DNA of 21,204 nucleotides. It comes from a virus. Below, one piece after another: positions 2,717 through 7,614 of this stretch. The notes beneath the pieces were generated by a model. It ran no database searches, was not told where the DNA came from, and saw only the letters and a list, made by a program, of their open reading frames with translations. Where the stretch lies: the IMG/VR virus record IMGVR_UViG_3300042868_008155, positions 1-21,204 of that record. The stretch is one strand, 5' to 3'. The position numbers and the translations under genes were made by a program. Within the stretch, counting starts at the first letter, position 1. Each line of letters starts with the position of its first letter.

Positions 2717-3227
2717 CGCTGACCTATCCTTTGGCAAGGCGGCAGAAAGCGCTATCGCGCAATGGTTGCGCGGTCGCGGCCATACCGTGCTGCCTGTTTA
2801 TGAGAAGATCATAGACGAAAAGAAAGGGCCGCAAGTCTTTCTCCCTGATGGAGAGCTTGTGGCGCCGGATTTGCTGACATGGAAGGAAGGCCGCGCTTGC
2901 TGGATTGAAGCCAAGCACAAGACGGCGTTTTCCTTTCATCGCATGACAGGCCGATGGGTGACCGGGATAGATTTGAGGCATTATCATGATTATTGCCGCG
3001 TTGCTCAATTGGCGCCCTGGCCTGTTTGGCTGATGTTTTTGCACAAGGGCGGGCAAGCGAAAGACAGCCCTGCGGAAAGTCCGGCTGGATTGTTCGGCCA
3101 GGAAATTGGGGCGCTACAGAAGGCTGAGAATCATCGCAGCGCCAATTGGGGGCGCAGCGGCATGGTTTATTGGGCGGTTGATTCGCTGCGTTTTCTAGCC
3201 CCGCTTGAAAAGGTTGCGCCGCAATGA
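2706..3227 (+). CDS. PD-(D/E)XK-like nuclease, putative
   Basis: The protein has 173 aa. An N-terminal helix (F-G-K-A-A-E-S-A-I, Glu14) is followed by V-A-P-D-L-L (Asp55) and W-I-E-A-K-H-K (Glu68-x-Lys70), the spacing and beta-strand setting of a PD-(D/E)XK active site. This fold covers phage Holliday-junction resolvases, restriction-like nucleases and recombination exonucleases; which one cannot be decided here. The C-terminal half contains hydrophobic strands (P-V-W-L-M-F-L) and no further recognised domain. The start overlaps the methyltransferase end by 11 bases, so they are coupled, which leaves open a modification/nuclease partnership as well as a DNA-repair role. Confidence 0.6.
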   Translation: MGFDADLSFGKAAESAIAQWLRGRGHTVLPVYEKIIDEKKGPQVFLPDGELVAPDLLTWKEGRACWIEAKHKTAFSFHRMTGRWVTGIDLRHYHDYCRVAQLAPWPVWLMFLHKGGQAKDSPAESPAGLFGQEIGALQKAENHRSANWGRSGMVYWAVDSLRFLAPLEKVAPQ

Positions 3228-4440: not shown

Positions 4441-4586
4441 CCCCCGAACCCGTCCCATCCACCCTAGAACAGCGCCTAGCCTTCTATGAGCGCTTCGCCC
4501 GCAACCTTGCCGAGCGCGTGCCGGACGCGGTAGAGGACGCCGAGCGCGAGGCGCATTTTGAGACGCAAAAACAAGGCAAGCCATGA
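4437..4586 (+). CDS. Hypothetical small helical protein, 49 aa, GTG start
   Basis: GTG 4437 overlaps the nuclease stop as GTGA, preceded by a G-rich stretch, and the frame ends in an ATGA overlap with the next gene (4583-4586). It is acidic and helical (T-L-E-Q-R-L-A-F-Y-E-R-F-A-R-N-L-A-E-R-V). No family recognised; tight packing on both sides supports translation. Confidence 0.5.
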   Translation: MTPEPVPSTLEQRLAFYERFARNLAERVPDAVEDAEREAHFETQKQGKP

Positions 4587-4999
4587 AGCGCCGGTCAATT
4601 TACGATCCGCTTCCCGCGCCATCGGCGGCAGAGATCGCCAATGAATACGCGCGCATGTCACGCGATAGCCTAGCGATGGCCTTGGCGGCAATGGGATACA
4701 AACGCGCGATATTTCAAGCGCCGCGTATTGGAACGCCGCTTTGGTATGAATACGCCATATTGAGCGAAAGCCTAGACACGCGCTTAGACCGCGCTGATTG
4801 GCCGGTCCTTTTGCTATACCGCCACCGGAAAGCGCCCGCCGTTTGGTTTTGCACCGTATCTGGTGACTGGAAAACAGACGGAGCCAAAGGGCGAAGCATC
4901 ATCAGCCTTGCAAGTTACACTTGGGAGATGTCCGAGAATGAAGCCGCCCGTCGCATCCTTGATGCAGTCGAACCGGACGCCAGACGTGTCAGACTATGA
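4583..4999 (+). CDS. Primase-associated protein, possibly a zinc-less CHC2-like domain
   Basis: This 138-aa protein precedes the helicase. Its C-terminal part, W-F-C-T-V-S-G-D-W-K ... G-A-K-G-R-S-I-I-S-L-A-S ... E-N-E-A-A-R-R-I-L, resembles the end of CHC2 primase zinc domains (G-x-x-G-D-x-I-S-L-V ... E-A-x-x-x-L). However, only one Cys is present in the whole protein, so zinc binding as in CHC2 is not possible. The likely role is priming or loading together with the downstream helicase, inferred from position and this partial resemblance. The end overlaps the helicase start. Confidence 0.45.
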   Translation: MKRRSIYDPLPAPSAAEIANEYARMSRDSLAMALAAMGYKRAIFQAPRIGTPLWYEYAILSESLDTRLDRADWPVLLLYRHRKAPAVWFCTVSGDWKTDGAKGRSIISLASYTWEMSENEAARRILDAVEPDARRVRL

Positions 5000-6398
5000 C
5001 CCCGACGATTGGAACCGCGCCCTAACGGGATCGGCACGCCAGCAGCGCGCCGTGGCCAAGTCCGCCCGGTCAGAAGCCGGCATCATGTCTTTTTCGGAAG
5101 AACAAGCCGCCCTTGCCTTTGCGGCAAAGCAGGAAGGCAAGATGGTTTGGGACCATACCGCAGGCCAATGGTTTCTGTTTAGCAAGGGCAAGTGGACGGT
5201 TGACGGGATAGGCGAGGCCAATGACCGCGCCCGGCAATTCTTACGCGACCTACAAGCCACGCCTGGCATATCCGAGGGCGAGCGCAAGGCGATGGGCAAG
5301 CTGGCGTTCACGCGCAACGTCCTAGCGTTCGCACAGTCAGACACGCGCATCGCAGTGCATCAAGGAGTGTGGGATGCCGACCCTTGGCTTTTGGGCGTGC
5401 CCGGTGGCGTAGTGGATCTGAAAACAGGCAAGAAACGCGATGCCAAGCCCAGCGAATACATCAGCCGAAACACGCTCATAGCGCCTGCCGCGCCTTCATT
5501 CGATCCGGTCCTATGGCGCAGCTTCCTAATCGAAGCGACAGCCAATGACCCCGAGACAATCGCCTTCCTCCAGCGCCTTTGCGGGTATTTCCTGACCGGC
5601 GACGTGACGGAGGAAATGCTCGCCTTCCTGTACGGGAGCGGCGGCAACGGCAAGGGCGTGTTTGTGACCACAGTCACCACGATCCTAGGCGGTTATGCCG
5701 TGGCGGCGCCCATGGGGGCCTTCACGGCAGATAGCCGCATGAACGTGGAATATTACCGGGCCCGCATGGCCGGAAGTCGCCTTGTCACCGCGTCAGAGAC
5801 AGAGGCGGGCCACGCCTGGGCTGAAAGTCAGATCAAGGAACTTACCGGCAATGAGGCGCCGGTCTCCGCGCGCCAGCCGTTCGGGCGCCCGTTTGAATAC
5901 TGGCCGCAATACAAGCTGATGTTTGTCGGCAACCACGCGCCGCGTCTCAAGGGCCGCAGCAAGGCCATGGAGCGGCGCTTGCGTATTGTCCCCTTCGACA
6001 ATGAGCCGGCAGAACCTGACCACACCTTAAAGACCCGGCTAGAGGCAGAATACCCGGCCATCCTGCAATGGATGATCGAGGGCTGCCTTGCGTGGCAACA
6101 GCAGCGCCTCGGCACCGCGCCCGCCATTGCGGCAAAAACAGCCGAGTATTTTGACCTTCAAGACGCTTTCGGCAGGTGGATTAGCGAGCGATGCACCCTT
6201 GACGCAGTTTTCAGCGCGCGGCCTGGCGCCCTTTACGCTGACTTCCGGAATTGGACCAAAGCAAACGGGGAACACGCCCCAAGTAACCAAGAATTTGCCG
6301 AAAATATCAATCGCCGCAAGGGCTTATTCCGTCGCCGCGTTCGGGGGCAGGATTGGGTAGGCGGTATCAAACTCAAGGAGATGGAAGATGATTTCTAA
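4938..6398 (+). CDS. P4/D5-type SF3 helicase (phage primase-helicase)
   Basis: The protein is an ATP-driven replicative helicase of superfamily 3. From ATG 4938 it has 486 aa. The first ~190 residues contain the D5 N-terminal region (L-G-V-P-G-G-V-V-D-L-K-T-G). The Walker A GSGGNGKG is at ~233-240, a Walker-B-like S-R-L-V-T-A-S-E-T-E at ~280-289, and the SF3 motif C K-L-M-F-V-G-N-H-A-P at ~326-335, followed by the R-R-L-R-I-V-P-F arginine region. A winged-helix-like C-terminus ends E-M-E-D-D-F. The primase active site is not evident, so it may work with the upstream 138-aa protein. The start is uncertain: 4938 has GGGAG 10 bases upstream, 4965 is an alternative, and the frame is open from 4863. 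Confidence 0.88.
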   Translation: MKPPVASLMQSNRTPDVSDYDPDDWNRALTGSARQQRAVAKSARSEAGIMSFSEEQAALAFAAKQEGKMVWDHTAGQWFLFSKGKWTVDGIGEANDRARQFLRDLQATPGISEGERKAMGKLAFTRNVLAFAQSDTRIAVHQGVWDADPWLLGVPGGVVDLKTGKKRDAKPSEYISRNTLIAPAAPSFDPVLWRSFLIEATANDPETIAFLQRLCGYFLTGDVTEEMLAFLYGSGGNGKGVFVTTVTTILGGYAVAAPMGAFTADSRMNVEYYRARMAGSRLVTASETEAGHAWAESQIKELTGNEAPVSARQPFGRPFEYWPQYKLMFVGNHAPRLKGRSKAMERRLRIVPFDNEPAEPDHTLKTRLEAEYPAILQWMIEGCLAWQQQRLGTAPAIAAKTAEYFDLQDAFGRWISERCTLDAVFSARPGALYADFRNWTKANGEHAPSNQEFAENINRRKGLFRRRVRGQDWVGGIKLKEMEDDF

Positions 6399-6735
6399 GG
6401 CACATCTTGACCTATTTGGCCCCACAGGGGGGCGGAGGGGGCGATGCGATGGGGAGTTTTCCCAACCTTTTACAAATACGGGCGCGCGCGCATATGCGCA
6501 GGTGGGAAGGTTTGAAAAAGTCCCTCCTCGCACCGCCCCCACCGCCCCCATCGCCCCCTGCGAGGTAGCGCCAGACCCCGCCCGCAATTACCCGACCCCG
6601 GCCAGCATTAAGGCGGCCTTCGACGATTGGACCGACGCCGGCCAGCCATGGCCACCGCCTGCCGGGCTGACGAGCGCCATTGCCTCCAGGCTGATCCCGC
6701 GCCGGGAACCCCAGCACGGCAAGCGGTGGCGCTGA
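6388..6735 (+). CDS. Hypothetical protein containing a large inverted repeat, 115 aa
   Basis: ATG 6388 follows a strong AAGGAG and overlaps the helicase end by 11 bases. The N-terminal ~60 residues are low complexity (G-R-R-G-R-C, then T-A-P-T-A-P-I-A-P), shaped by the inverted repeat in the DNA. The C-terminal ~50 residues (A-S-I-K-A-A-F-D-D-W-T-D-A-G-Q-P-W-P-P-P) look like a normal small domain. No function is recognised. The first half may be translated mainly because it lies over a DNA element. Confidence 0.5.
   Translation: MISKAHLDLFGPTGGRRGRCDGEFSQPFTNTGARAYAQVGRFEKVPPRTAPTAPIAPCEVAPDPARNYPTPASIKAAFDDWTDAGQPWPPPAGLTSAIASRLIPRREPQHGKRWR
6428..6549. repeat. Imperfect ~43-bp inverted repeat, candidate replication origin
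   Basis: The arms 6428-6469 and 6507-6549 are reverse complements at about 35 of 43 positions with a one-base gap; one arm is G-rich and the other C-rich. The 37-base centre begins with an AT-rich ttacaaata and contains the perfect palindrome gcgcatatgcgc (6488-6499). It lies directly after the helicase gene, a usual place for the origin the helicase acts on. An RNA or recombination role is also possible. Confidence 0.55.
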
Positions 6736-7423: not shown

Positions 7424-7614
7424 TGGACGGGTTGCGGCATGATGTGGCGCTTTCGCTTGGCTTGCTCGTTTTAGACGCGGCTGGGCTGGCGCTGGACCGG
7501 CATGAGGCGGTTCGGGTGCCCTGGACCATTTACGACTGCGAGATTATTGTTCGGCCAAAATCGGCGCCGCGCCCGCATCCCGCGTATTTTTGGCTTGGGG
7601 CGGGGGCGGAATAA
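7423..7614 (+). CDS. Hypothetical small protein, 63 aa
   Basis: ATG 7423 overlaps the upstream stop (TGATG); GTG 7411 in the same frame is less likely. The N-terminal part is helical and hydrophobic (V-A-L-S-L-G-L-L-V-L-D-A-A-G-L-A-L), the rest strand-like. It ends six bases before the -35 box of the promoter at 7620, so it is the last gene of the early unit. No function recognised. Confidence 0.5.
   Translation: MDGLRHDVALSLGLLVLDAAGLALDRHEAVRVPWTIYDCEIIVRPKSAPRPHPAYFWLGAGAE

What the first reader, a model, noticed from the sequence alone, without database searches (positions are those of the whole stretch)
6428..6549. Large G/C-strand-biased inverted repeat behind the helicase, candidate origin
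About 43-base arms, roughly 80% matched, surround a centre with an AT-rich stretch and a 12-base palindrome. One arm is G-rich (ggggggcggaggggg), so the strands can also form unusual structures. It shapes the encoded protein into low complexity, implying the DNA structure is what is being kept. The position just after an SF3 helicase gene fits an origin.
Basis: partly seen in the sequence, partly recalled or inferred. Interest (0 to 1): 0.6.

Follow-up and report, generated by a model that had tools for sequence, protein, structure and literature searches.

The report
Phage replication origin beside helicase gene
Just after its DNA-unwinding helicase gene this phage carries two facing sets of short repeats around a distinctive alternating core, an arrangement that more than a hundred related phages, prophages and plasmids keep in the same place with different repeat sequences, and that is very probably where the phage starts copying its DNA.

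Summary
The inverted repeat is real, and its arms are arrays of 9-bp iterons (two left, three right, opposite orientation) around AT-rich shoulders and an alternating purine/pyrimidine core. True span 6428-6562. Synonymous variation inside it is about five-fold suppressed. The same anatomy, with different iterons in each lineage, follows the helicase stop in most of 163 homologous loci: the best inverted-iteron centre of the whole locus lies there in 102 (7 expected by chance). The annotated replication origin of phage Sfi21 has this form and place; cos in Sfi21 and phi105 lies elsewhere. Iteron sequence tracks the helicase's C-terminal winged-helix domain. Best reading: the phage's replication origin, bound by its own D5-type SF3 helicase through that domain. 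One-arm changes in iteron number argue against a simple hairpin. The organisation is known from SaPI/PICI and Sfi21; new here are its breadth in phages, the core with probable selection for purine/pyrimidine alternation in GC-rich hosts, and its placement inside a gene whose product begins with a clamp-binding-like motif. No replication was measured here.

The parts
4986..6398 (+). D5-type SF3 helicase (D5_N + DUF5906 + C-terminal winged helix), proposed origin-binding initiator; likely GTG start at 4986
   Evidence: Pfam/PHROG; translation; AlphaFold model pLDDT 93.5; SaPI5 primase-helicase 7ola Z 29.8 over 382 residues
6282..6338 (+). Codons for the recognition helix and start of the wing (SNQEFAENINRRKGLFRRR, residues 401-419 of the model; residues 412 and 419 change together with the iteron)
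6388..6735 (+). 115-aa ORF overlapping the helicase end; begins with a clamp-binding-like motif (HLDLF here, QLDLF/QPDLF/QPSLF in relatives); its linker is encoded by the origin
   Evidence: in-frame indels only in relatives; no family match
6428..6436 (+). Left iteron 1 GGGGGCGGA
6437..6445 (+). Left iteron 2 GGGGGCGAT
6450..6479 (.). Left AT-rich shoulder (TGGGGAGTTTTCCCAACCTTTTACAAATAC)
6482..6500 (.). Alternating purine/pyrimidine core GCGCGCGCGCATATGCGCA (19 nt, holds the 12-bp palindrome)
6501..6528 (.). Right shoulder (GGTGGGAAGGTTTGAAAAAGTCCCTCCT)
6532..6540 (-). Right iteron 1 GGGGGCGGT
6541..6549 (-). Right iteron 2 GGGGGCGGT
6550..6558 (-).

Best explanation
It is the phage's replication origin. 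The helicase made from the gene just upstream binds the 9-bp iterons with its C-terminal winged helix, one oligomer on each facing array; the two complexes meet across the core, melt the AT-rich shoulders and start two forks in opposite directions, after which host (or other phage) polymerases take over. Shown here: the anatomy, DNA-level selection, position behind the helicase across a large family, concerted iteron change in both arms, iteron/C-terminal-domain association, and identity of form and place with the annotated Sfi21 origin. Inferred: binding, double hexamer, melting at the shoulders, bidirectional start. The core is proposed to be kept for its purine/pyrimidine alternation (Z-prone or easily unwound under negative supercoiling).
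For: Best inverted-iteron centre of each locus falls -20..+400 of the helicase stop in 102/163 loci, 7.0 expected; 91 elements listed. Alternating run of 12 or more within -30..+220 of the stop in 134/163 loci, against 3.2% of random windows and 41/1254 windows after other long ORFs; either feature in 143/163. Positive control: the Sfi21 record annotates 'origin of replication' at 34487-34784, right after its primase gene; the detector puts its best centre of 15.7 kb there (24 against 9 elsewhere). Also in phi105, AcaML1, Marcoliusprime, CrimD, PeggyLeg03 and plasmids pMNOD03, pM44601, pSINAC02. Iteron distance tracks C-terminal-domain distance (Mantel r 0.245, p 0.0005; partial r 0.224, p 0.0005 given the other domains), not the AAA+ or N-terminal part (partial p 0.20, 0.90). 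Iteron spacing peaks at 9-10 bp, about one helical turn. Synonymous suppression. Literature: SaPI Rep recognises iterons directly downstream of its gene with its C-terminal domain; the D5-type Cch2 C-terminal domain binds its downstream repeats (PMC7581432); PICI origins have two iteron sets flanking an AT-rich region 3' of rep, and the EcCICFT073 rep-ori segment replicates a plasmid (PMC6092414).
Against: No replication, binding or read-depth data for this phage. GC skew shows no switch at the element. 20 of 163 loci show neither strong iterons nor core, and the Thermaerobacter plasmid shows none. In the window itself the strict 7-mer score is only 7, against 9 elsewhere, probably because its G-runs differ at the variable positions and low-complexity words were skipped; the alignment-based score does single it out.
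Confidence: 0.88

Rival explanations
1. A structural (cruciform/hairpin) origin of the pRN1 type: the folded stem, not the iterons, is what the helicase recognises.
For: Strong fold of the strand (DNA z -4.9, RNA z -5.0); pRN1's 3' stem-loop is needed for replication and one compensatory pair of mutations restored it (PMC4234260).
Against: Iteron units are added in one arm only (L005) and left/right counts differ in 37 of 71 elements; phase and number vary while the unit is kept; the iteron tracks the winged helix. BPP-1, proposed to be pRN1-like, did not show this anatomy by eye.
Confidence: 0.08
2. Operator or RNA element controlling the replication operon (autoregulation, terminator, leader).
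For: It lies at the end of the helicase gene among genes of one direction; an initiator could repress its own operon.
Against: No promoter-like site and no terminator there; Rfam hits are far below cut-off and only reflect a G/C hairpin; it lies behind, not before, the gene; it has two facing arrays with a core; in Sfi21 the same element is annotated as the origin.
Confidence: 0.03
3. Packaging (cos/pac) site, as terminase genes follow in the window.
For: The large terminase gene starts about 1.5 kb downstream.
Against: phi105 cos is at the genome ends, the element at about 33.9-34.0 kb; Sfi21 cos at 40.7 kb, the element at about 34.6 kb; in AcaML1 the terminase genes are 8 kb away.
Confidence: 0.01

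Closest known systems
Streptococcus phage Sfi21 origin of replication (NC_000872, 34487-34784, as annotated)
   Same: Directly after a D5-like primase/helicase gene; facing iteron arrays around an AT-rich centre; separate from cos
   Different: AT-rich centre of TAAA/TATA repeats instead of the CG/CA alternating core; annotated as non-coding; different iterons
SaPI/PICI rep-ori module
   Same: Origin immediately 3' of rep; two iteron sets flanking an AT-rich region; SaPI5 primase-helicase is the nearest solved bacterial structure (7ola)
   Different: Here in a phage with its own large terminase, not a satellite; PMC6092414 wrote that no other known bacterial replicon shares the organisation; no alternating core described in the passages read
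pRN1 orf904 / BPP-1-type stem-loop origin
   Same: SF3 helicase with C-terminal winged helix, cis element 3' of the gene
   Different: pRN1 has a stem-loop without iterons (PMC4234260)
SCCmec Cch2 downstream repeats
   Same: D5-type helicase whose C-terminal domain binds repeats downstream of its operon
   Different: Only direct repeats are needed for binding there; inverted repeats dispensable (PMC7581432)

Membership tests
Sfi21/PICI-type origin (iteron origin behind a D5/SF3 helicase) | Lies directly 3' of the initiator helicase gene | tested here: met
   Element begins 30 nt past the helicase stop; core midpoint median 67.5 nt past the stop in the family
Sfi21/PICI-type origin (iteron origin behind a D5/SF3 helicase) | Two iteron sets flanking an AT-rich region | tested here: met
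   2 left and 3 right iterons; family-wide shoulders 50-56% AT against 37% background
Sfi21/PICI-type origin (iteron origin behind a D5/SF3 helicase) | Helicase plus origin suffice for autonomous replication | not testable with these tools
   needs a plasmid assay
PICI (as an element) | Satellite without its own phage packaging and structural genes | tested here: not met
   Large terminase in the window; portal and capsid genes were not searched, so this rests on the terminase
D5-type SF3 helicase | D5_N + DUF5906, Walker A GxGGNGK, SF3 helicase fold | tested here: met
D5-type SF3 helicase | Self-loading, origin-specific unwinding as a hexamer | not testable with these tools
   biochemistry needed
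pRN1-type stem-loop origin | Stem arms paired one-to-one, no iterons | tested here: not met
   Iterons present; one-sided unit gains

The most novel reading that the evidence does not exclude
The alternating purine/pyrimidine core at the dyad is a selected, Z-DNA-prone switch of a very widespread phage origin class: negative supercoiling flips it, which sets the spacing or opening of the two helicase rings. In this lineage the origin also encodes the linker of a clamp-binding protein that delivers the host sliding clamp to the origin.
Probability: 0.3. Interest if true: 0.75.

Novelty: new variant of a known kind. Interest (0 to 1): 0.56.

Why it matters
It gives a simple rule for finding replication origins in a large group of uncultured phages and prophages, with examples from Pseudomonadota, Actinomycetota, Bacillota and a planctomycete plasmid, and a ready set of initiator/iteron pairs for working out how an SF3 helicase reads its origin. 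It also contradicts the published statement that this origin layout is peculiar to PICI satellites, and points to a core whose alternation, not sequence, is conserved.

Tried and rejected
GC skew: no informative switch. Rfam: only sub-threshold miRNA hairpin matches. Nucleotide search of phage records: no match. BPP-1 downstream region: no facing iterons with a core seen by eye. Transition/transversion test of the core: odds ratio 4.9 (p 6e-22) when both partners were chosen for having a core (biased). Without that choice it is 1.8 at 68% identity or more (77 pairs, many poorly aligned) and rises to 5.0 at 80% or more (22 pairs, p 0.0007); at CpG sites alone it is significant only from 76% identity. 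So selection for alternation is likely, not proven. C-terminal DLF motif on the helicase itself: only 18 of 163 loci, all with similar tails. Searches for papers on Z-DNA at phage origins found none, in an open-access library only.

Full report
Observation. The window is a phage contig. Right after the stop of a D5-type helicase gene (6398) lies an inverted repeat whose arms match in 35 of 43 columns. Its score of 28 compares with 8.0 +/- 1.6 in 5000 dinucleotide shuffles (max 17) and with at most 24 anywhere else in the contig. The arms resolve into a 9-bp unit, GGGGGCGNW: two copies on the + strand (6428, 6437) and three on the - strand (6532, 6541, 6550), so the element runs to about 6562, beyond the given end. 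Between them lie AT-rich shoulders and a 19-nt alternating purine/pyrimidine core.

Constraint. The element sits inside a 115-codon ORF. In the 14 sequences compared the ORF has only in-frame indels, and 4-fold degenerate sites differ 6.5% inside the element, 33% in the rest of the ORF, and 27% in the end of the helicase gene. The 9-bp unit equals three codons (Thr-Ala-Pro on the right), so gain of a unit keeps the frame.

Relatives. Close relatives (L003-L021; L037) keep both arms. In L017, L018, L019 and L037 the unit is GGGTGCNNN in both arms. L005 has gained a unit on the right only, and L003 carries a further degenerate one. Homologues at roughly 36-58% identity from viral and bacterial contigs have quite different units (GTGACGGAT, TTCGGACAG, GGGTGCCCA, CCAGCGACG and others) in the same layout. 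In 102 of 163 loci the strongest facing-repeat centre of the entire locus lies just behind the helicase stop (7.0 expected), and 134 of 163 have an alternating run of 12 or more there, against about 3% of control windows. Many of the 163 are related to each other: 96 elements remain after dereplication below 60% identity in register, and the Mantel and iteron counts used 71 dereplicated loci.

Function. In phage Sfi21 the depositors annotate 'origin of replication' at 34487-34784, just behind the D5-like primase gene, with cos 6 kb away; the detector, with slightly wider spacing limits, puts its best centre in that feature. The experimental paper behind that annotation is not held and was not read. 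phi105, AcaML1, two mycobacteriophages, an Arthrobacter phage and three plasmids show the layout too; phi105 and AcaML1 separate it from cos and terminase. SaPI Rep and Cch2 are reported to bind downstream iterons with their C-terminal domains (PMC7581432), and a PICI rep-ori segment replicates a plasmid (PMC6092414).

Recognition. The model of the helicase (pLDDT 93.5) matches the SaPI5 primase-helicase over nearly its whole length (Z 29.8, rmsd 4.4, 382 residues) and ends in what reads as a winged helix (H381-394, H402-411, strands 416-431). Iteron distance follows the C-terminal domain and not the other two. Within the close family all GGGGGC members carry NRRKGLFRRR and the four GGGTGC members NRHK(G/D)LFRRT, that is residues 412 and 419, at the end of the putative recognition helix and in the wing; this may be one or few evolutionary events, so it is a lead and not proof. 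Iterons are mostly 9-10 bp apart, about one turn, so neighbouring subunits would sit on one face.

Hairpin or iterons. The strand folds well (z about -5), but copy number differs left and right in 37 of 71 elements and changes on one side. Binding sites explain this; an obligatory stem does not.

The core. Runs mix CG, CA, TG and TA steps, so alternation is kept rather than a sequence. Substitutions in the core favour transitions, which keep alternation: odds ratio 4.9 when both partners had a core (conditioned), 1.8 to 5.0 without that condition, growing with alignment quality. In AT-rich phi105 the core is a TATATATATA run. Z-DNA formation, easy unwinding or a host factor's site are all possible; none was tested.

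The overlapping protein. All close relatives carry [QH][LP][DS]LF at its start, or QPSLF in L017/L018. This resembles the bacterial sliding-clamp motif (consensus from memory). It suggests, no more, that the protein brings the clamp to the origin.

Noticed in passing
6388-6735: Small overlapping ORF starts with a clamp-binding-like motif (HLDLF; QLDLF, QPDLF, QPSLF in relatives) and has a conserved C-terminal part without family match.
   Followed up: partly
L068, L095, L132, L168, L187 and others, helicase C-termini: A set of homologous helicases with similar tails ends in a DLF motif (e.g. DSNSDLFSGE), absent from the window's helicase, whose downstream overlapping ORF has such a motif instead.
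   Followed up: partly
6-326: 21 copies of a 15-bp tandem repeat (TGGCGCCGACAAGGC) at the contig end, open as an RLAPT-type repeat protein.
   Followed up: no
1078-1683: GcrA-family protein next to a Dam-type methyltransferase gene (1724-2716), suggesting an alphaproteobacterial host.
   Followed up: no
7602-7610 and 3148-3156: Single isolated copies of the iteron-like 9-mer (GGGGGCGGA, GGGGGCGCA) outside the element.
   Followed up: no
4583-4999: 138-aa gene before the helicase without a family match; its end (KGRSIISLASYTWEMSENEAARRIL) looks like a DnaG zinc-domain remnant by eye.
   Followed up: no
L019, roughly 200 nt past the helicase stop: Extra iteron pair (AGGGTGCAAAGGGTGCAATGCG) beyond the right array, with an insertion between.
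   Followed up: no
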